Source of the DNA: Bacteroidia bacterium
GTDB lineage: Bacteria; Bacteroidota; Bacteroidia; AKYH767-A; OLB10
DNA length: 18,598 nt
Direction of reading: 5' to 3'
Assembly: GCA_025450095.1 (NCBI GenBank)
Contig: JANWID010000156.1
Span: forward strand, 1-18,598
In this document: one piece after another, positions 4,100 through 16,262 of the stretch
Position numbering within the stretch: position 1 is the first letter of the stretch
How the letters are laid out: each line of letters opens with the position of its first letter
Notes under the pieces: model-generated
What the model was told of the DNA's origin: nothing
The model's database searches: none
What the model saw: only the letters and a program-made list of their open reading frames with translations
Translations under genes and position numbers: made by a program

Positions 4100-6325
4100 T
4101 TACTTAACCGCAATCCGTGAATGATAAATCACATCTCCGTAATGGATCTCCGCTAAATAAATCCCGCTGCTCCAGGTTTCAGTTAATACAGTTGTTTCGG
4201 TAAATAATTCCTGTTTTTCAAAAATCTTTCTGCCTTTAATGTCGTGTATGACTAAGCTGAAAGGTACACCAGTATCTACTTTAATATGAAACTGGCTTTG
4301 TGCAGGGTTCGGATAAACAATTACGCTATTCCCGTTATTTATTGAAGGAATACCCAGCAGCGGATCAATTGTAGCATTACCCGATACGGAAGTGAAAAAC
4401 AATTCCACTTCTCCGGCTGATGTGCCCTGGATGGTTGAAGGTGTAACTGCCAACGTGGTAAGCTGAGTGATACCCGGTGCTGCACGCAGATGAAGTTTTC
4501 CAAGCGAACCGGAAATATTGATAACGTTCGTATGATTAATCCGCGTCAGCGCAATTTCGATGATGCCTGTTGCAGGATTATAATTTGAAAACGCGATCAT
4601 GTCAGTGCCCAGGGTTCCCAAAACACTCGGAGACCAGCTCAGACTGGTTTGAGATGCATCTACAAGAGTTGGATCCAACTCCAGTGTAAATGCAATTCCA
4701 TATAGACTGTCGGGAAGCGGTGCAGAAAAACCGAGGTAAATATCGAAATCGATATTGCCACCGGGCCCTACTGCTGCAGGAGATGGAATCAATGTAATGT
4801 CTGTACTTGCAGCTGTTAATGCAATTGGAGAAGATATTCGCAGAGGATGCACCTGGTTAAAATTAATACCGATCGCAGTAGTATCATTCATATTCACATT
4901 GCCATCGCCGTTAGTATCTGCATGTTTGTGATTCACGGTAGTGGCAAATGAATTAGTCCAGGCAGTTGCCGGCTGACCAGTCCAGGATGTGGAAGCTCCG
5001 GCACGTATGGGTCCTGCATCATTATACGCAAGCCCGATATTCAGCAAATCGAGATTATTTGCAACCAGGTCGGAATTGCAATCTCCCGGCCATACCAGGC
5101 TTCCCGATGCTGTATTTCGCTGATGTAAAGTTGAAGTCATCGGCCTGTATCCTGTTGCACATGCAAAATCCAGTTTTTCGGTAAGGGTGTTTGTTGCAGT
5201 ATTGAATTCAAAAAGATTTCCTTTATAATCATCACCGGCAATTGACCGCAACGCGTAAAGCTTGCCATTTATTTCAGTCAGGCGTCCCGCAAGGTGATTG
5301 TACATATTTGCGGGTCCCGGCATATCTGCAAGTTTGGTGAGTTGATTTGTAGTAGTGTCGAATGAACTAAAAGTTCCCTGGTTATTTGCTCCGTCCTTTG
5401 TAAGCATGAGATAAAAGATTCCGTTTGTGGCTTCGAATAATGTTCCACTACCACTTCCGGAAGCAATACTCAGGTCAGCGGCTTTTAAAGTTGTACCGGC
5501 AGCGATATCATGGATAAAAATTACTCCTTTATTATTCAATCCTCCAACACGTGAAACACCATATATTCGTCCGGGTGAAAGTTCCGAAAGTATAGCATCC
5601 GGGTTGGAACCATTGGTTTGATCAAATTGAAAAACTGCCGAAAGGATATTTCCTGTAATGTCGTAAGTAAATAATGTTCCCTTATTATTTGTTCCCCCGA
5701 AAGAAGTTGTTCCATATAATTTTCCATCTGACGCCTGCATGAGACCTGCACCGGGGCTACGTCCTGTTGTTGCCGCGTCGAAACTTTCTTTCAACGTCAG
5801 GCTGTTGTTACCCGGATCAAATTCAAACAGGGCACCCTCTGAATTCACACCTCCGGAACTGGTTAAACCATATAATTTTCCGTTGGATGCCAGGCACATT
5901 TCCGCAGGATTCGCTCCCGGTGATGAGTAAGGATCTGCAAAACCACCATTTGTATTATTGAAAGTTGCCGATACTCCGTTAGTTCCCGCTACAGGATCGA
6001 TTTCATAAATGACCCCCATATTATCAAATCCTCCCCGCTCTGCGATGCAATAATACATTCCATTAGGCGCAGCCGTTATACCTCCGGAAGGGTATGCTCC
6101 CTCATAAGCCTGGTTCATGTCAACGATGGAAGTAATCACATCATTCACATAATCGTATTCAAAAATATTTCCGGCTTGCATGCTTCCTCCTCCTTCGGTC
6201 ATGCCAACAAGCTTGCCCCCGGTGAACAAGAGATCTCCCATAGGATAATTCCCGGTGTTACTATCGAATTCTACCTTCGCAACCGCTGCTCCAGTCGACG
6301 GATCGTATTCGAACAGGGTTCCCAT
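4100..6325 (-). CDS. C-terminal part of the GloVer protein: repeats, dockerin-like, cohesin-like, T9SS sorting domain
   Basis: This 741-residue frame is the downstream part of the interrupted gene; its first ATG is simply an internal Met after the TGA. It holds the rest of repeat 7 and repeats 8-14 (GGKLVGM, NGMYYCI, NGKLYGL, DGKLYGT, PGRIYGV, NGIFYLM, NGKLYAL). A dockerin-like pair of Asp/Asn-rich calcium-loop motifs follows (GDCNSDLVANNLDLLNIG and ADTNGDGNVNMNDT, about residues 415-490 of this part). After that comes a cohesin-like beta-sandwich (about 510-655, SPAAVGPGGNIDFDIYLGF onward). The end is a T9SS type A sorting domain (VIVYPNPAQSQFHI ... GIYLAEIHYGDVIYHSRIAVK). The T9SS tag predicts export through the outer membrane and surface attachment or release. 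Without a signal peptide this piece alone would stay in the cytoplasm, so it is unlikely to be a real separate gene. Confidence 0.8.
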   Translation of the reverse strand: MGTLFEYDPSTGAAVAKVEFDSNTGNYPMGDLLFTGGKLVGMTEGGGSMQAGNIFEYDYVNDVITSIVDMNQAYEGAYPSGGITAAPNGMYYCIAERGGFDNMGVIYEIDPVAGTNGVSATFNNTNGGFADPYSSPGANPAEMCLASNGKLYGLTSSGGVNSEGALFEFDPGNNSLTLKESFDAATTGRSPGAGLMQASDGKLYGTTSFGGTNNKGTLFTYDITGNILSAVFQFDQTNGSNPDAILSELSPGRIYGVSRVGGLNNKGVIFIHDIAAGTTLKAADLSIASGSGSGTLFEATNGIFYLMLTKDGANNQGTFSSFDTTTNQLTKLADMPGPANMYNHLAGRLTEINGKLYALRSIAGDDYKGNLFEFNTATNTLTEKLDFACATGYRPMTSTLHQRNTASGSLVWPGDCNSDLVANNLDLLNIGLAYNDAGPIRAGASTSWTGQPATAWTNSFATTVNHKHADTNGDGNVNMNDTTAIGINFNQVHPLRISSPIALTAASTDITLIPSPAAVGPGGNIDFDIYLGFSAPLPDSLYGIAFTLELDPTLVDASQTSLSWSPSVLGTLGTDMIAFSNYNPATGIIEIALTRINHTNVINISGSLGKLHLRAAPGITQLTTLAVTPSTIQGTSAGEVELFFTSVSGNATIDPLLGIPSINNGNSVIVYPNPAQSQFHIKVDTGVPFSLVIHDIKGRKIFEKQELFTETTVLTETWSSGIYLAEIHYGDVIYHSRIAVK

Positions 6326-6352
6326 ATAATTAACGCCACCCGATGAAGTAAG

Positions 6353-7366
6353 TCAGTATAATTTACCATTGGGCGCTTCGCACACGGTTCCGTACCAGGG
6401 AGAGCCGCCGACAGTTCCATCAAAAAATATTTTTGTATCAAACAAGTATGTTGCAGGATCAAATTCAAAAAGAGTTCCGTCAGTCCCGCCTTCGTTTGTC
6501 ATTCCATACAGCTTGCCGTTTGAAGCCTCCATCAGGGAGCTATATGAATATTTTCCTTCCAATGCTGTAAAGTCATGCCGTTTGGTGAATGTAGAAGTTG
6601 TAATATCATATTCGAATATTACACCAAAATCATCCGTGCCACCATAAGCTGTCATTCCGTAAAGCTTACCATTTGACGCCTGTATCAGACCGCCCCATGG
6701 TTCAAATCCATCAATTGCAGATGCTGGAAAATCATAAAATTTTGTAAGTGTATTGGTTGTAATATCATATTCAAAAAGGACGCCACCACCACCTGTTCCA
6801 CCGCTACCCAGCGCATAGAGCTTACCGTTAGTTGCTTCAACAAAGCCCCCGTTATTTGTGGGGCCGAAATCCAGTCCGTTGAAATCAGAGATCACTGTGA
6901 ACACCTGGCCAGGAATATCGTAAGAGAAAATAGTTCCGCCATTAACAGCTCCACCGGATGCAATTATACCGTAAAGCTTACCATTTACTGCCTGGATGGG
7001 ATGACCGGCCGGGTAACCTCCATCTGTATTTAAATCAAAATCTACCAGGCTGAAATAAATGTTATTGATCTCATCGAATTCAATTAAATTTCCATAACCA
7101 CAGGAACCTCCGGAGAAAGTATATCCGTATAGTTTTCCATTCGCGGCTTCTATCAACTCTCCCTGGGGCGAATCACCAGGATAGGAAGTGCTGAACTGGT
7201 GAATAATCTGCTGGTTACTGCCGTCATAATTTGTTTTAAATACGACGCCCAGCCCTGCATTTCCGCCAAAGGCAGCAGTCCCCCACAGTTCCGTCTGGCC
7301 ATAGGAAGATATTGAAAAACTAATACAGGAAGAAATTAAAAGCAGGGATTTGGAAATGGTGTTCAT
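6353..7366 (-). CDS. N-terminal part of the GloVer protein: signal peptide and first six repeats
   Basis: This 337-residue frame begins with a Sec signal peptide (MNTISKSLLLISSCISFSISSYGQ, cleavage near residue 23). It then holds tandem repeats of about 45-58 residues with the core NGKLYGMTxxGG...GxLFEYD, the 'GloVer' (Gloeobacter/Verrucomicrobia) tandem repeat recognised in choice-of-anchor proteins. Visible cores: TELWGTAAFGG, NGKLYGYTFSGG, NGKLYGIIASGG, NGKLYALGSGG, NGKLYGMTAYGG, NGKLYGMTNEGG; the seventh is cut by the TGA. The spacing and aromatic/Gly pattern suggest propeller-like blades. The ATG at 7366 directly precedes the signal peptide and fits as the start. If translated alone it would be a secreted stub with no anchoring domain. 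The ligand is unknown. Confidence 0.8.
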   Translation of the reverse strand: MNTISKSLLLISSCISFSISSYGQTELWGTAAFGGNAGLGVVFKTNYDGSNQQIIHQFSTSYPGDSPQGELIEAANGKLYGYTFSGGSCGYGNLIEFDEINNIYFSLVDFDLNTDGGYPAGHPIQAVNGKLYGIIASGGAVNGGTIFSYDIPGQVFTVISDFNGLDFGPTNNGGFVEATNGKLYALGSGGTGGGGVLFEYDITTNTLTKFYDFPASAIDGFEPWGGLIQASNGKLYGMTAYGGTDDFGVIFEYDITTSTFTKRHDFTALEGKYSYSSLMEASNGKLYGMTNEGGTDGTLFEFDPATYLFDTKIFFDGTVGGSPWYGTVCEAPNGKLY

Positions 7367-8323: not shown

Positions 8324-11300
8324 ATGAGTTTTTTCAAAGACAGTGTCATTAAAATGGACAAACGGGTTTATATCGTTTTCATCCTGGTTGTTTCCGTTGC
8401 CATTGCCAATGCGGTGTTGAGTACCATCAAGATCACGAATAATAAAAACGCGATTTTTGAAATTACGCAATCTACAAATCCCACCCTCGACAACCTCGAG
8501 GATTTTCATTTGCTGGTGACTCGTTCGAGGATGTTTATTTCCAACTGGGTGTATTTGCGTGATAACAATAACGACAAAGCCAGCCTGGTGCATCTCAATA
8601 ATATAAATTATCCGAGACTGAAACGAAGGCTGATTGTATTAACCGGTAAATGGCGTTCGCAAACAAATATTGATCAGGTGCAACAGCTGTTTCACGAGTA
8701 CGAATCTGTAATACATGAGCAGGAAAAAATTATAAACAGCCTGGTTAGTATCGATGACTACGATAACCACATAAAGAAAGAACTCGCCGAAGAGCAACTC
8801 GAAAAGGAAATCATTCCTGCCACCAACACCATCATGGTGAAGCTGAAAGAGCTGATCAATATTAAAAAAGAAGAAGCCCGGCAAATGCAGGATGCCATGC
8901 TACTCGAAAACGCTCACCTCCTGGTGATTGTTTTTTCGCTCGCAATCATGGTAATTCTTTCCGTGATGATGGCTGGTATTTACCTGATGAAAAAGGTGAT
9001 ACTTCCATTGCTGCGCGTCAGGCAGACATTGCTGAGCATGAGTATCGGTGAATTACCCGAAGTGCAGCGCGTGGATGGTCGTAACGCTCTTGCCGAAATC
9101 AATACAGCATTATTCCAGCTTCGTGAAGGGTTGCAAAGGACTTCCACTTTTGCAGCTGAAATAGGACGTGGAAATTTTAATGCAGAATTTCTTCCCCTGA
9201 GTGAAAATGATGTTTTGGGAAGCACACTGCTCGAGATGCGTGATAAACTCAAAAAAGCATCCGACGATGATGCGGTTCGGAATTGGGCTGCGGAAGGATA
9301 TGCACACATCAGTTCGGTACTGCACAGTAATACAGAAGATATTAAAAAATTATCCGGTGAAATAATTACCGGGCTTGTTACTTACATCGAAGCGCAGCAG
9401 GGTGCTATTTATTTACTGAATGAAAATCACGGAGGCGAAGCATTTATTGAGCCTGTTTCTTTTTATGCTCCTGGCAGGAATCAGCTGAATATGGAAAGGC
9501 TGAAGCTCAATGAGGGACTCATCGGTCAGGCTATTTCAACAAATACAAAAATATACCTGCAACATGCCGGTGAAAAAGGATATACCATTGAAACATCTCT
9601 TGCAACGATACCGGTGAGTGAATTGTTGATTGTGCCGCTGGTTGCCGGAGGCCGTGCGTTCGGTGCATTGGAAATTCACAGTGTGAAGCCTTTGAATAAA
9701 GCATTGGTCACTTTCGTGGAAAGAATTGCAGAACCTATATCCGCCAACGTGATGAATATGAAAGCAAACCTGCTGACACTGCAATTGCTTGAAGAATCAC
9801 GCCAGAAAACAAAAGAGCTGGCAATGCAGGATGAGGAATTGCGCCAGATCAACAATGAGTTAATGGTGCAGTCGGGACGATTGAAACAATCGGAATCAAA
9901 TTTACGATTTCAGCAGGAAGCCTTGCAGCGAGTGAATGGAGAACTGGAAAGTAAAGCGCTTTTGCTTGAAGAAAAAAATATGGCTGTTGAGGATGCACAT
10001 AAGGCGCTTGCATTTAAAGCCGATCAGCTCGAGAGAAGCAATAAGTATAAGTCAGATTTCCTTGCCAACATGTCGCACGAATTAAGGACACCACTTAATA
10101 GTGTACTCATACTGGCCCGCCTGTTGAGTGAAAACCGTACAGGAAATATGTCTGAAAAACAGGTGGAGCATTCAAAAGTGATTCATAAGTCAGGTAGTGA
10201 CCTCCTGATTATCATTAACGATATTCTGGACCTGTCGAAAATTGAAGCCGGGAAGCTGGATCTGCATAAGGAAAATATTCCGATTGCCGAGATCCGGAAT
10301 AATATGGAATTGCTCTTTACGGAAGTATCCCGTGAAAAAAATATTCATTTCAGTACGGTCCTGGATGATCAGCTTCCAGAATTCATAGATACCGATCGCG
10401 TTAGGATGGAACAGGTGTTGAAAAACCTGCTGGGAAATGCTTTTAAAGTCACATCTGTTGGTGGAGAAGTACAGCTCAAAATTTCAAAATTACCCGGGGG
10501 AAACAGTTTTGCAAATGCAAAGCTGAAGCAATCGGAAATGGTAATATCATTCGCCGTTGTGGATAACGGGATTGGTATTCCATTGGATAAGCAGAAGCTG
10601 ATTTTCGACGCATTTAACCAGGCCGACAGTTCCATTACACGCAAATTCGGAGGCACAGGCCTCGGACTTGCCATCTGCCGGCAGCTTTCATCATTGCTTG
10701 GCGGTGAGATCACTTTGGAAAGCAGTGAGGGAAAAGGTTCGGTATTTACCTTATATATTGCTGGTAGTGATCATGTACATTCAGGAAATTTTAAAACGGA
10801 TGATTCCCGGATTAAATTTGAAACACACGATATTGGCGGACATGTTCTCATCCTTTCCGGAAATGAAAATACACCTCCCGACTGGGAATCATTCTTTACG
10901 AGGGAGAACTTCCAGGTTAGCTTGAGCAATATCACCGACTTCAATCCTGTTGGAATTCATCCGGACATTATCATACTCGACGCCACGATTCCTGATAAAG
11001 AATACATAGATATTGTCATGCAACTGAAACAGGATAAACGAACATCGGGCGCCATGCTGGTTTGCCGGTCGGTTTCCGAATACCTGCCACCGGAAATAAA
11101 AGCTCTGGTACAACTGCATACTACCGCACCGGTTAGTTCATTGTTAGTAACAGCAATTATTGAAATGACGCAGGAGCGGGTTATGATGTCGCAGGGAAAT
11201 GTTACTGCAGGAGATCAATCAGAACCCTTAGATAATTCAAGAATATCATCAAGGACTATCAACCAAGTTACCGATGCAAGATTGAACAATGTGAAAATAC

Positions 11301-11656
11301 TGATTGCCGATGATGATATCCGGAACATCTATGCACTGACAACACTATTCGAAAATGAAGGAGCCCGCGTGGTATGTGCCATGGATGGTTTTGAAGCGAT
11401 CGAAAAGTTTAAAGAGCACCTGGATATTGATATCCTGATCATGGACATTATGATGCCGGGTAAGGATGGCCTGCAGGCGATCACCGAAATAAGGGCGATG
11501 GAAGGAAACAACCCTATGCCCATTATCGCGGTAACGGCAAAGGCTATGCGAAACGATCGGGAAGTATGCATGAAAGCAGGTGCCACCGATTACGTAACAA
11601 AACCGGTGAATATGGAAAACCTGATTTCCCGTATTTGCAGAATGCTGGGTAAGTAA
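8324..11656 (+). CDS. Membrane hybrid sensor histidine kinase / response regulator (HAMP-GAF-HisKA-HATPase-REC-REC)
   Basis: This 1110-residue inner-membrane hybrid kinase senses a signal and autophosphorylates. In order it has: a transmembrane segment (15-33); a ~160-residue periplasmic helical sensor (34-195) of the four-helix-bundle/CHASE3 kind; a second transmembrane segment (197-222); HAMP (about 223-275); a GAF domain (about 325-475); and a coiled coil (485-572). The HisKA domain carries MSHELRTP (His585). The HATPase has NLLGNAFKVT (Asn705), DNGIG (747-751) and FGGTGLGLA (775-783). A degenerate receiver-like module (838-948) has the Asp of IIILDATIPD but neither the acidic pair nor the conserved Lys. 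The C-terminal receiver (988-1110) is complete: acidic pair in ADDD (995-998), Asp1041, Thr1071, Lys1093. The ATG at 8324 is used; a second ATG at codon 11 is possible. It lies 42 bases upstream of a receiver-kinase gene, probably in one operon, and there is no DNA-binding output domain. Confidence 0.93.
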   Translation: MSFFKDSVIKMDKRVYIVFILVVSVAIANAVLSTIKITNNKNAIFEITQSTNPTLDNLEDFHLLVTRSRMFISNWVYLRDNNNDKASLVHLNNINYPRLKRRLIVLTGKWRSQTNIDQVQQLFHEYESVIHEQEKIINSLVSIDDYDNHIKKELAEEQLEKEIIPATNTIMVKLKELINIKKEEARQMQDAMLLENAHLLVIVFSLAIMVILSVMMAGIYLMKKVILPLLRVRQTLLSMSIGELPEVQRVDGRNALAEINTALFQLREGLQRTSTFAAEIGRGNFNAEFLPLSENDVLGSTLLEMRDKLKKASDDDAVRNWAAEGYAHISSVLHSNTEDIKKLSGEIITGLVTYIEAQQGAIYLLNENHGGEAFIEPVSFYAPGRNQLNMERLKLNEGLIGQAISTNTKIYLQHAGEKGYTIETSLATIPVSELLIVPLVAGGRAFGALEIHSVKPLNKALVTFVERIAEPISANVMNMKANLLTLQLLEESRQKTKELAMQDEELRQINNELMVQSGRLKQSESNLRFQQEALQRVNGELESKALLLEEKNMAVEDAHKALAFKADQLERSNKYKSDFLANMSHELRTPLNSVLILARLLSENRTGNMSEKQVEHSKVIHKSGSDLLIIINDILDLSKIEAGKLDLHKENIPIAEIRNNMELLFTEVSREKNIHFSTVLDDQLPEFIDTDRVRMEQVLKNLLGNAFKVTSVGGEVQLKISKLPGGNSFANAKLKQSEMVISFAVVDNGIGIPLDKQKLIFDAFNQADSSITRKFGGTGLGLAICRQLSSLLGGEITLESSEGKGSVFTLYIAGSDHVHSGNFKTDDSRIKFETHDIGGHVLILSGNENTPPDWESFFTRENFQVSLSNITDFNPVGIHPDIIILDATIPDKEYIDIVMQLKQDKRTSGAMLVCRSVSEYLPPEIKALVQLHTTAPVSSLLVTAIIEMTQERVMMSQGNVTAGDQSEPLDNSRISSRTINQVTDARLNNVKILIADDDIRNIYALTTLFENEGARVVCAMDGFEAIEKFKEHLDIDILIMDIMMPGKDGLQAITEIRAMEGNNPMPIIAVTAKAMRNDREVCMKAGATDYVTKPVNMENLISRICRMLGK

Positions 11657-11698
11657 AATAATTATAAATCGCTTCCGGGCTTACAGACCATATAATTA

Positions 11699-12826
11699 AT
11701 GCAAACAGGAAAAACCATAAAGGAAAAGCTGCTCGAAGCGGATAGTTTCCAGGTATTGATTGTTGATGACCGGCCGGAAAACCTGCTCACGCTGGAAAGC
11801 ATTATCGAAAAGGAAGGCCGAAGGATCATAAAAGCAACCGGTGGAAATGAAGCATTACGATTGGCGATCAGAGAGCCGATCGGACTTGTTATGCTCGATA
11901 TCCAGATGCCGGAAATTGATGGTATTGAAGTCGCCAGGTTGTTGCGTTCAAATAATGCCACTCGTCACATTCCGATAATTTTTGTTTCTGCTATCAATAA
12001 TTCCGAACGACTTTGCATGGAGGAATTTGAAGAAGGGACAGTTGATGTCCTGCATAAGCCGCTCGATATGGAAGAAACCCGTAATAAGGTTGCTATGCAT
12101 GAACAACTTTACCGGCTACGTGTGGAATGTGTGAGGTTGCAGGCTATTGCCGACAGAGATGCATTACAGTTTGAGCAATTCGTATATATTGTTTCGCATG
12201 ATCTGAAAGCGCCATTGCGTGCAATCGACAATCTTACCAATTGGATTTCGGAAGATCTGGGCGGAAAAACGGAAGGTAATATCAGCGAGAACCTGCAGTT
12301 GATGAAAAGCAGGGTTGGAAGGATGCAGGCTTTGCTGGAAGGTATCCTGGAATTCTCCCGCAGCGGAAGGTATAGCGAAGAACCTGAAATGATTGTTGTA
12401 AAGCACCTCGCACATGCTGTTTTCGAATCGCTTGCACCGCCGGCAGGATTTACATTGGAAGTGAATGATCTTCCTCAGGTGAAAATGGAATCCCCCCGCA
12501 TGTATACCATATTATTTCATCTTATAAAAAATGCGATCCGGCATCACCCTTCGCCTGATAAAGGTGTAATTTCCATTAGTTGTGAAAACGAAGGTGAGAA
12601 TTTGGTCTTTTCTGTAACAGATAATGGTAGCGGCATCAAACCACAGTATGCAAAAAAAATATTTGAACTGTTTGCCACGCTGAAATCAAGAGATGAAATG
12701 GAAACTCCCGGTATCGGTTTGCCAGTCGTTAAAAAAGTTTTGCTGGATATTGGTGGTGACGTGTGGTTGGATACATCATATACAAAAGGTGCAGCGTTCA
12801 AATTTTCGATTCCTGTACAATTGTAA
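11699..12826 (+). CDS. Soluble response regulator-histidine kinase (REC-HisKA-HATPase)
   Basis: This 375-residue cytoplasmic protein has an N-terminal receiver and a C-terminal kinase. The receiver (about 17-135) is intact: acidic pair in IVDDRPEN (Asp23-Asp24), phospho-acceptor Asp67 in MLDIQMPEIDG, Ser97 and Lys120 in HKP. A short helical linker (137-158) leads to a HisKA domain with IVSHDLKAPLRAIDNL (His167) and a HATPase with LIKNAIRH (Asn278), DNGSG (308-312) and PGIGLP (337-342). There is no transmembrane segment or sensor domain, so its input is probably phosphate from the hybrid kinase directly upstream. Receiver-first kinases of this form occur in relays and in phytochrome-associated systems. 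No output domain beyond the kinase is present, so its own target must be encoded elsewhere. The reading frame ends just before tandem repeats and a convergent gene. Confidence 0.92.
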   Translation: MQTGKTIKEKLLEADSFQVLIVDDRPENLLTLESIIEKEGRRIIKATGGNEALRLAIREPIGLVMLDIQMPEIDGIEVARLLRSNNATRHIPIIFVSAINNSERLCMEEFEEGTVDVLHKPLDMEETRNKVAMHEQLYRLRVECVRLQAIADRDALQFEQFVYIVSHDLKAPLRAIDNLTNWISEDLGGKTEGNISENLQLMKSRVGRMQALLEGILEFSRSGRYSEEPEMIVVKHLAHAVFESLAPPAGFTLEVNDLPQVKMESPRMYTILFHLIKNAIRHHPSPDKGVISISCENEGENLVFSVTDNGSGIKPQYAKKIFELFATLKSRDEMETPGIGLPVVKKVLLDIGGDVWLDTSYTKGAAFKFSIPVQL

Positions 12827-14540: not shown

Positions 14541-16262
14541 ATGATGAGAAAAAATTTACTCGCATCCATAATTATTTTGTGTTCATACATGGCAACATCT
14601 CAATCGTTGCCTCATGTTTTTGCTCCCGGCGAAAAATCTTCTATGCCAAACTACCTGCAATCCAGGTCAGCAGCATCATCCGGAGTAACTACACCTCCCG
14701 GTTCGCCGGTAAGAACCATTGGGGAATGGGAAGAATTACAGGGATTACTCATTACATGGACTTCCTATCAAAGCATCCTTAAAGAAATTGTAAGAGCAGC
14801 AAAAGAAGAAACAAGAGTTTACATTGTTTGTAACAATCCCGCGACTGTTATCAGTTATCTCGCAACTAACAACATTGATACTGTAAATGTTACCTGCATG
14901 ACTACTCCATATAATTCGGTATGGAGCCGTGATTATGGTCCATGGAGCGCATATACCAATGATGTTGATACACTGGTTACGATTGACTGGATCTATAACC
15001 GTCCCCGTCCGCTTGATGATGTTATTCCATCTGCAATTGCAACACAACTGGGAACTCCGTTTTATGAAACAACCACATTTCCCTGGGACCTGATTCACAC
15101 CGGAGGCAATTTTATGACCGATGGGTTCGGAACCGGATTCTCATCCAACCTGGTTGTGAATGAAAATCCAACAAAGACCATTGCGGAAATCGATACCATT
15201 ATGAACCGGTTTATGGGAATCAACAGGTATATAAAAATGAACACGCTGCCTTATGATAATATCCATCATATCGATATGCACATGAAATTGCTGGACGAAG
15301 AAACATTGCTGATGGGAGAATATCCTGCCGGTGTTGCAGATGGTCCGCAGATTGAAGCCAACCTGCTTTATATTCTGAATAATTTTAATTCTGTTTTCGG
15401 CACACCTTATAAAATAATCAGGATCCCGATGCCGGATGATAATGGCCTGTATCCGCACAACGGAGGTGATTATTTTACATATACCAATTCATCATTTATA
15501 AATAATACGATCATTGTTCCGATATATAATATACCGGAAGACTCGACCGCACTTAACATTTATCGTGAAGCACTTCCCGGCTATACTGTTACCGGTATCA
15601 ATTCGCTGGCAAGCATAGGTGCACTCGGTGCATTGCATTGCATTACCAAAGAGCTGGGAACAGATGATCCGTTGCTCATCAGTCACAAGCCACTCCCCGA
15701 TACTTATGATGATGTTAATCCTTACCTGGTTTCAGCCCTGGTTAAGCATCGTACCGGAATTTCATCTGCTACTTTATATTATCGTACCGATACTCTTTTA
15801 CCTTATATATCAGTACCAATGTCACAGTCTCCAAACCCGGCTTACTGGGAAGGTTATATTCCGGCACAACCCGTAGGTTCTTTGATCTATTATTATATTT
15901 CAGGTGAATCCGTCAGTGGAAAACAACAGGTTCGCCCCATGCCTGCACCGGCAGGTTATTGGAAATTCAGAGTGTTGGGTCCAATTTCAGTTTCAGAACA
16001 CGCTCCGCTGATCATGGAAAATATTTTTCCGAATCCCTCTAAAGGAATTACCTGCATTCCGGTGACTTCTTCACTTTCATGCCCCGTAAATATTAGTGTA
16101 CTGGATATTACCGGCAAATTGATCACAACGGTTTTTGAAGGATTCTCGTATATCGGACAGAACAGGTATTTTGTTGATACGCAAATGTTTAGTGCCAGTG
16201 TTTATGTGGTTCGGGTGGATTATGGAACAGGTTCTCTCTACCGGAAATTAATCGTGCGATAG
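14541..16262 (+). CDS. Secreted peptidylarginine-deiminase-like enzyme (PAD_porph) with T9SS sorting domain
   Basis: This 573-residue protein has the same layout as Porphyromonas gingivalis PPAD: signal peptide (1-21), PAD_porph/agmatine-deiminase-type catalytic domain (about 55-385), Ig-like domain (about 395-480) and T9SS sorting domain (about 490-573, FPNPSKG ... SVYVVRVDYGTGSLYRKLIVR). Guanidino-modifying residues are all in place: Asp131 in WSRDYGPW, HTGGNFMTDG (186-195), His243 and Asp245 in HHIDMH, candidate Asn316 in YTNS, and the nucleophile Cys367 in GALGALHCI. The pair Arg154-Pro-Arg156 in YNRPRP matches the two arginines that in PPAD bind the carboxylate of C-terminal arginine (from memory: Arg152, Arg154). 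It should hydrolyse arginine guanidino groups to citrulline and ammonia. Export through T9SS favours peptide or protein substrates over agmatine, but this is inference. It is a single-gene unit, divergent from the sugar phosphotransferase gene. Confidence 0.88.
   Translation: MMRKNLLASIIILCSYMATSQSLPHVFAPGEKSSMPNYLQSRSAASSGVTTPPGSPVRTIGEWEELQGLLITWTSYQSILKEIVRAAKEETRVYIVCNNPATVISYLATNNIDTVNVTCMTTPYNSVWSRDYGPWSAYTNDVDTLVTIDWIYNRPRPLDDVIPSAIATQLGTPFYETTTFPWDLIHTGGNFMTDGFGTGFSSNLVVNENPTKTIAEIDTIMNRFMGINRYIKMNTLPYDNIHHIDMHMKLLDEETLLMGEYPAGVADGPQIEANLLYILNNFNSVFGTPYKIIRIPMPDDNGLYPHNGGDYFTYTNSSFINNTIIVPIYNIPEDSTALNIYREALPGYTVTGINSLASIGALGALHCITKELGTDDPLLISHKPLPDTYDDVNPYLVSALVKHRTGISSATLYYRTDTLLPYISVPMSQSPNPAYWEGYIPAQPVGSLIYYYISGESVSGKQQVRPMPAPAGYWKFRVLGPISVSEHAPLIMENIFPNPSKGITCIPVTSSLSCPVNISVLDITGKLITTVFEGFSYIGQNRYFVDTQMFSASVYVVRVDYGTGSLYRKLIVR

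What the first reader, a model, noticed from the sequence alone, without database searches (positions are those of the whole stretch)
14541..16262. A PPAD-like, T9SS-exported deiminase outside Porphyromonas
The protein keeps the whole layout of P. gingivalis PPAD (signal peptide, deiminase domain, Ig-like domain, T9SS tag). It has the full set of guanidine-modifying residues (Asp131, His243, Asp245, Asn316 candidate, Cys367) and the Arg-Pro-Arg pair (154-156) that in PPAD recognises C-terminal arginine. Secreted bacterial citrullination is best known from Porphyromonas. An environmental-type Bacteroidota with the same arrangement suggests a wider and older role, such as release of ammonia or change of surface proteins. 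A difference from PPAD seems to lie just around the HID motif (NIHHIDMHM here), which could alter specificity.
Basis: partly seen in the sequence, partly recalled or inferred. Interest (0 to 1): 0.7.

Follow-up and report, generated by a model that had tools for sequence, protein, structure and literature searches.

The report
Secreted PPAD-like deiminase without its lock
This environmental bacterium has a gene for an exported enzyme that should turn arginine into citrulline, a cousin of the gum-disease enzyme PPAD, but it lacks the tyrosine thought to restrict PPAD to the last arginine of a chain.

Summary
Window 14541-16262 (+) encodes a 573-aa protein with a leader (by eye), a PAD_porph deiminase domain, an Ig-like domain and a type IX secretion tail. 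Its best solved relatives are PPAD chains. All five catalytic residues and the Arg-Pro-Arg pair are present. It is not an agmatine deiminase: 49 bits against a cut-off of 382, and a joint clade is rejected (p-AU 1.3e-51).

"PPAD-like outside Porphyromonas" is not new: two papers already describe wide bacterial distribution.

Worth keeping: the protein belongs to a sister branch of PPAD (signature LPYDxIHHIDMHMK). None of 319 branch rows has a tyrosine at the position of PPAD Tyr233, which Goulas 2015 says bars internal arginines; the Arg pair is kept in 319 of 319. PPAD's own branch has Tyr in 99 of 120 rows; 18 of the other 21, one subclade, carry Ser/Thr, the residues of human PAD4/PAD2.

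Best reading: a secreted peptidyl-arginine deiminase with a remodelled, perhaps wider, entrance. Action on internal arginines is inferred, not shown.

The parts
14541..16262 (+). whole gene: secreted PAD_porph deiminase, 573 aa
   Evidence: ORF and translation; Pfam
14541..14606 (+). N-terminal leader (about residues 1-22), Sec-type by inspection
   Evidence: sequence; helix 3-18 in the model; no signal-peptide predictor was run
14721..15653 (+). deiminase domain PAD_porph, residues 61-371
   Evidence: PF04371, 128.6 bits; PPAD fold match
14931..14933 (+). Asp131 = PPAD Asp130, guanidine binding
   Evidence: Asp in 319 of 319 branch rows
15000..15008 (+). Arg154-Pro155-Arg156 = PPAD Arg152/Arg154, carboxylate and peptide-carbonyl binding in PPAD
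   Evidence: both Arg in 319 of 319 branch rows; 0 of 17 agmatine-type rows carry the first
15246..15287 (+). end of the Michaelis loop and HID motif, residues 236-249 LPYDNIHHIDMHMK; Asn240 stands where PPAD has Tyr233, His243/Asp245 catalytic, Met246 where PPAD has Cys239
   Evidence: ungapped register in profile comparison; column counts
15444..15479 (+). longer loop, residues 302-313, before catalytic Asn316; 11 of the 12 positions are gaps in 120 of 120 PPAD-branch rows, the twelfth is an aligned Pro
15486..15488 (+). Asn316 = PPAD Asn297
   Evidence: 319 of 319
15639..15641 (+). Cys367 = PPAD nucleophile Cys351
   Evidence: 319 of 319
15666..15983 (+). Ig-like domain, about residues 376-481
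   Evidence: strands between 395 and 478; aligned to PPAD through its residue 463-465
16023..16256 (+). type IX secretion C-terminal domain, residues 495-572
   Evidence: PF18962 35 bits; TIGR04183 30.4 bits over cut-off 23

Best explanation
The gene encodes a secreted peptidyl-arginine deiminase of the PAD_porph family, in a branch that is sister to PPAD's own. It is made with a leader, exported by the type IX system through its C-terminal domain, and works outside the cell or on its surface. Cys367 attacks the arginine guanidinium held by Asp131 and Asp245, His243 acts as acid/base, and ammonia and citrulline result (mechanism carried over from PPAD by the conserved residues). Arg154 and Arg156 hold the substrate's C-terminal carboxylate or backbone carbonyl, which favours arginine peptides over agmatine (inferred). 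The tyrosine that closes PPAD's entrance is absent, and residues that frame PPAD's ammonia/water channel (Cys239, Arg252, His258, Thr346) are replaced. The entrance is therefore remodelled and may be more open than PPAD's, so internal arginines may be accepted as well as C-terminal ones. Shown here: homology, architecture, residue conservation, branch position. Inferred: export, activity, substrate, the wider entrance, and a role such as gaining ammonia/nitrogen from peptides or changing the charge of surface proteins. The confidence below is for a secreted peptidyl-arginine deiminase, whether or not internal arginines are accepted; I split it as about 0.3 (internal too) and 0.4 (C-terminal only, first rival).
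Against: No activity data exist for this branch. Arg154 (PPAD Arg152) is kept, and Goulas 2015 names both Tyr233 and Arg152 as colliding with a C-terminal extension, so the missing tyrosine alone may not open the site. PPAD mutated at Arg152 or Arg154 still acted on Gly-Arg only among the short peptides tried (PMC4893104 passage): removing one contact did not give internal activity. A conserved aromatic residue, Tyr238 (193 Tyr and 8 Phe of 201), lies on the same loop and could take over. Ala or Ser at PPAD Cys239 leaves about 8% activity; here the residue is Met. The model has no substrate and its coordinates could not be measured. The window's own genome is not held, so its T9SS could not be checked directly.
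Confidence: 0.7

Rival explanations
1. It is a strict exo-deiminase like PPAD: only C-terminal arginines are modified, with Tyr238 or another residue doing the work of Tyr233.
For: Arg pair fully kept; PPAD Arg152 is indispensable and would itself collide with extensions; PPAD Arg152Ala and Arg154Ala stayed active on Gly-Arg only; Tyr238 is Tyr or Phe in 201 of 201.
Against: Asn240 stands at the Tyr233 position with an ungapped register; the position is Gln, Val, Gly or Ala in 286 of 319 rows and never Tyr or Phe.
Confidence: 0.4
2. It is an extracellular free L-arginine deiminase that gains ammonia and citrulline from free arginine.
For: PPAD itself is described as able to citrullinate free arginine (PMC4893104 passage); arginine deiminases share the two carboxylate arginines (PMC4487231 passage).
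Against: Arg156 (PPAD Arg154) is kept in 319 of 319; Goulas 2015 names its contact with the preceding peptide carbonyl as the main cause of peptide preference.
Confidence: 0.15
3. It is an exported agmatine deiminase, as many of its homologs are labelled.
For: Where a source gives a name, it is agmatine deiminase (family) or agmatine/peptidylarginine deiminase; same fold.
Against: 49.3 and 52.6 bits against cut-offs of 381.8 and 483; the first Arg of the pair is Ala or Gly in 17 of 17 agmatine-type rows, and Thr187 is Glu there in 17 of 17; AU test p 1.3e-51. Two of 22 relatives' genomes carry a separate agmatine-type gene beside an aguB-like gene.
Confidence: 0.05
4. It is a binding protein or inactive cargo with a dead deiminase domain.
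For: No activity is known in the branch.
Against: All five catalytic residues in 319 of 319 rows of a diverse branch.
Confidence: 0.04

Closest known systems
PPAD of Porphyromonas gingivalis (PDB 4YT9, 4YTB, 4YTG, 5AK7, 5AK8, 6I0X)
   Same: Deiminase, Ig-like and T9SS domains after a leader; five catalytic residues; Arg-Pro-Arg pair; TGGN motif; 26-28% identity
   Different: Tyr233 is Asn240, Cys239 is Met246, Trp240 is His247, Asp347 is Gly363, Arg252 is Gly259; longer loop before the catalytic Asn; different branch of the tree
Agmatine deiminase AguA and similar chains (2JER, 3H7K, 6B10; also 1XKN, 2CMU and 1ZBR, whose titles say putative (peptidyl-)arginine deiminase)
   Same: Fold and guanidine-modifying core
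   Different: Matches end at residue 371-378 of the model for most of these chains, so no Ig-like or T9SS part is matched; Ala/Gly in place of the first Arg, Glu in place of Thr187 in 17 of 17 rows; query far below curated cut-offs
Vertebrate peptidylarginine deiminases (PAD1, PAD3, PAD4)
   Different: 12-13% identity; no PAD_N or PAD_M domain found here. Calcium dependence was not tested
I1 branch (L132-L135), sister of PPAD's branch
   Same: Arg pair 4 of 4, catalytic residues 4 of 4
   Different: A(I)SHIDTW-type motif, open frames of 414-933 aa; joins PPAD at 100/99

Membership tests
PAD_porph family (PF04371) | Pfam model over its curated cut-off | tested here: met
   128.6 bits against 25
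PAD_porph family (PF04371) | Asp/His/Asp/Asn/Cys guanidine-modifying set | tested here: met
   D131, H243, D245, N316, C367
PPAD-type secreted deiminase | two arginines that bind the substrate carboxylate | tested here: met
   R154 and R156 are present; binding itself not tested
PPAD-type secreted deiminase | Ig-like domain after the deiminase domain | tested here: met
PPAD-type secreted deiminase | T9SS C-terminal domain | tested here: met
   PF18962 and TIGR04183 over cut-off
PPAD-type secreted deiminase | Sec leader | not tested
PPAD sensu stricto (branch of the P. gingivalis enzyme) | lies inside the PPAD branch | tested here: not met
   PPAD+I1+IQH form a group without the query branch at 100/98
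PPAD sensu stricto (branch of the P. gingivalis enzyme) | Tyr233 gate and Cys239-Trp240 | tested here: not met
   Asn240, Met246, His247; in the PPAD branch Tyr is 99 of 120, Cys and Trp 120 of 120
PPAD sensu stricto (branch of the P. gingivalis enzyme) | exclusive action on C-terminal arginine | not testable with these tools
   needs an enzyme assay
Agmatine deiminase AguA | NCBIfam model score | tested here: not met
   49.3 bits against 381.8; 52.6 against 483
Agmatine deiminase AguA | groups with agmatine deiminases | tested here: not met
   tree; AU test p 1.3e-51
[quoted passage not shown]
   Pfam scan lists only PF04371 and PF18962 at E <= 0.001

The most novel reading that the evidence does not exclude
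The query branch (found in Bacteroidota, Ignavibacteria and Chlorobi records) consists of secreted bacterial deiminases that citrullinate internal arginines. The tyrosine gate that confines PPAD to C-terminal arginines would then be a late invention of PPAD's own branch, replaced again in one subclade by the Ser/Thr found in human PADs. Bacterial endo-citrullination outside the cell would be widespread in the environment and would not need an arginine-cutting protease as partner.
Probability: 0.3. Interest if true: 0.75.

Novelty: new variant of a known kind. Interest (0 to 1): 0.5.

Why it matters
Papers of 2015 and 2018 call PPAD the only known prokaryotic PAD, or unique to Porphyromonas (PMC4585897 passages; PMC6147916 abstract start). 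Here the PPAD layout is common in environmental relatives, and PPAD's own branch looks like the rarer one in an even sample: 21 of 395 genomes for the query branch, 4 of 395 for the I1 branch and 0 of 395 for PPAD proper (only two candidates per genome were scored there). Nature has varied the one residue thought to decide C-terminal against internal arginine, on a fixed catalytic background. That makes the question of what decides specificity testable with natural enzymes of environmental bacteria. The label agmatine deiminase, given to many of these proteins, is probably misleading.

Tried and rejected
Agmatine deiminase: rejected. A possible link to agmatine use was followed: an aguB search gave hits in 22 of 22 relatives' genomes, none over the cut-off; 7 of 22 scored 240 bits or more. 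Two of the seven (G010, G014) sit beside a separate agmatine-type gene. Of the other five I examined two: in G008 the hit lies among several pyrimidine-degradation-type genes, in G012 beside one such gene, so they look like ureidopropionases. G020 was fetched (L161) but not examined; G011 and G013 were not looked at.

Gene neighbourhood as a clue to function: among 80 genome loci plus the window, the commonest neighbour family is found in 10 of 81 (it includes the window's two kinase/regulator genes), the next in 9; the downstream yceD gene is shared by 5 of 81 (up to six ORFs on each side, many loci are cut short). No partner could be named.

Promoter: the Bacteroidota-type promoter pattern (recalled) has one match in the window, not near the gene, 0.99 expected. 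Sigma-70-like and terminator-like matches are at chance level. No RNA family at the gathering score and no tRNA in the window.

Prior print: paper searches listed nothing on the missing Tyr233 in a PPAD sister branch. I saw listings and, of seven papers, abstracts or passages; the only longer read was part 2 of 8 of PMC4487231. Figure S4 of PMC8826395 and the full tree of PMC7864903, which may contain these branches, could not be seen.

Sampling limits: rows P0002-P0121, P0122-P0241 and P0242-P0359 are the best-scoring hits of three capped lists, not random samples. The 80 genome loci were found with six peptide patterns, one of which (HHIDMHMK) contains the motif counted. The even sample is free of this and gives 0 Tyr in 21 (one of the 21 lies in G001, already counted among the loci). 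The single origin of the query branch is weakly supported (72/13) because two rows, L129 and L131, are unsettled.

Full report

Active site. D131, R154, R156, H243, D245, N316 and C367 align with PPAD D130, R152, R154, H236, D238, N297 and C351. Goulas 2015 (PMC4487231; abstract, passages and part 2 of 8 of the text) reports that R152 binds the substrate's C-terminal carboxylate and is indispensable, that R154 binds the carboxylate and the preceding peptide carbonyl, that Tyr233 binds the carboxylate, and that a C-terminal extension would collide with Tyr233 and Arg152. The equivalent of Tyr233 is Ser468 in human PAD4 and Thr468 in PAD2. Montgomery 2015 (PMC4893104, passages) reports that PPAD acts on C-terminal but not internal arginines in synthetic peptides, and that its Arg152Ala and Arg154Ala mutants kept activity on Gly-Arg only; it also cites disputed earlier reports of autocitrullination.

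What differs. I aligned 319 rows of the query branch: 121 (the query included), 80 genome loci and 118 new ones; 317 are distinct. The equivalents of D130, R152, R154, H236, D238, N297 and C351 are conserved in 319 of 319. Position 233 is Tyr in 0 of 319: Gln 101, Val 78, Gly 73, Ala 34, and 33 others (Glu, Asn, Asp, Leu, Arg, His). Cys239 is Met in 318 of 319, Trp240 is His in 319, Asp347 is Gly in 319. In the first 201 rows the stretch reads L-P-(Y/F)-D-x-I-H-H-I-D-M-H-(M/I/L)-K with three exceptions in all (two at Pro237, one at Met246), and a loop of 12 residues (302-313), 11 of them gaps in the PPAD branch, precedes the catalytic Asn. Cys239, Arg252, His258 and Thr346, all replaced in the query, are among those that frame PPAD's ammonia-exit/water-entry channel. 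The loop register is secure: a profile comparison aligns the loop without a gap from the conserved Gly-Ile to His-x-Asp.

PPAD's own branch. Of 120 rows returned for PPAD, 99 have Tyr at 233; 21 do not: 13 Thr, 7 Ser, 1 Phe. Eighteen of these (13 Thr, 5 Ser) keep the Arg pair; three odd rows (P0124, P0126, P0127) have Pro in place of Arg154. The 18 form one clade (SH-aLRT 97) in a tree built without the loop columns (a quick tree with a long-branch warning). So nature has put the human-PAD residues at this position in one PPAD subclade.

Tree. Of 84 rows, 32 are query branch, 18 PPAD, 4 I1, 6 GGTG, 2 IQH, 3 DIT, 17 agmatine type and 2 other; groups were named by me from the motif around the catalytic His and, for agmatine type, from motif and length. 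The query branch joins PPAD, I1 and IQH at 100/98; these plus GGTG are split from the agmatine, DIT and other rows at 98/96. PPAD+I1+IQH is a group without the query branch at 100/98. A clade of query branch plus agmatine types is rejected (p-AU 1.29e-51). A single origin of the query branch is weakly supported (72/13). Tyr at 233 occurs, among the sampled groups, only in the PPAD branch and in one of the two 'other' rows, so it is most simply a gain within that branch; this is an inference, not a formal reconstruction. The Arg pair is not universal on the PPAD side: the two IQH rows lack its first Arg.

Distribution. In 395 evenly drawn genomes of the phylum of G001 (a Bacteroidia MAG by the title of L002), 251 have some match at E <= 1e-10, most of them in the range of agmatine types; 21 (G001 included) hold a query-branch member at E <= 1e-124, and the next match is at 2.8e-54. 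With a PPAD-branch query, 6 of 395 match at E <= 1e-60: four I1-type (44-50% identity) and two query-type (G077, G273), none PPAD proper; only two candidates per genome were scored. Named sources include Ignavibacteria and Chlorobi MAGs. The genome scan confirmed 557 of 567 pattern matches as relatives; 80 were kept.

Export and context. PorV and SprA families are above cut-off in 22 of 22 genomes of relatives. The window itself carries a second ORF with the T9SS tail (4100-6325). No gene neighbour is widely conserved. Fourteen of 22 relatives' genomes have a single PAD_porph match, the query type; with the aguB results this argues against a role in agmatine use, though three aguB-like hits were left unexamined.

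Known or new. That PPAD-type genes exist beyond Porphyromonas is in print: PMC8826395 calls them more widespread than previously thought (passages), and PMC7864903 shows a large tree of bacterial PADs with transfers to centipedes (passages). The enzyme is therefore a new variant of a known kind. The missing Tyr233 in a large secreted sister branch, and the Ser/Thr subclade inside PPAD's branch, did not appear in the listings of nine paper searches.

Verdict. A real, well-conserved secreted deiminase, likely active on arginine in peptides, with open specificity. Confidence 0.7 for a secreted peptidyl-arginine deiminase, about 0.3 for action on internal arginines.

Noticed in passing
window 4100-7366 (-): A repeat-type gene (NGKLYG..GG..GTLFEYD repeats) whose second part ends in a T9SS tail is interrupted by an in-frame TGA at 6355-6353; the reading frame goes on unchanged after it. 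Natural break or sequencing error not settled.
   Followed up: partly
P0122-P0241 (PPAD-branch rows): The commonest residues at PPAD positions 232 and 235 are Thr (109 of 120) and Asp (112 of 120), as in the natural P. gingivalis variant crystallised in 6I0X; the residues of the common laboratory strains are the exception in the branch.
   Followed up: no
L136, L137, L138, L140, L154, L155: A further group of long PAD_porph proteins (618-724 aa) with motif GGTGH(I/L)D and only the second Arg of the pair.
   Followed up: no
L139, L156: PAD_porph proteins with motif GIQHIDC that keep the catalytic Asp, His, Asp, Asn and Cys but lack the first Arg of the pair (Tyr or Asn there; the second is Arg in one of the two), beside PPAD+I1 in the tree.
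   Followed up: no
L083, L084, L085: A 458-461 aa PAD_porph group with motif DITD(Q/H)HIDGF, near agmatine deiminases in the tree, in three genomes that also hold the query type.
   Followed up: no
window 8324-12826 (+): Two adjacent hybrid histidine-kinase/response-regulator genes upstream of the finding; genes of the same cluster lie near the deiminase gene in 10 of 81 loci, the window included, which may be chance for such common families.
   Followed up: no
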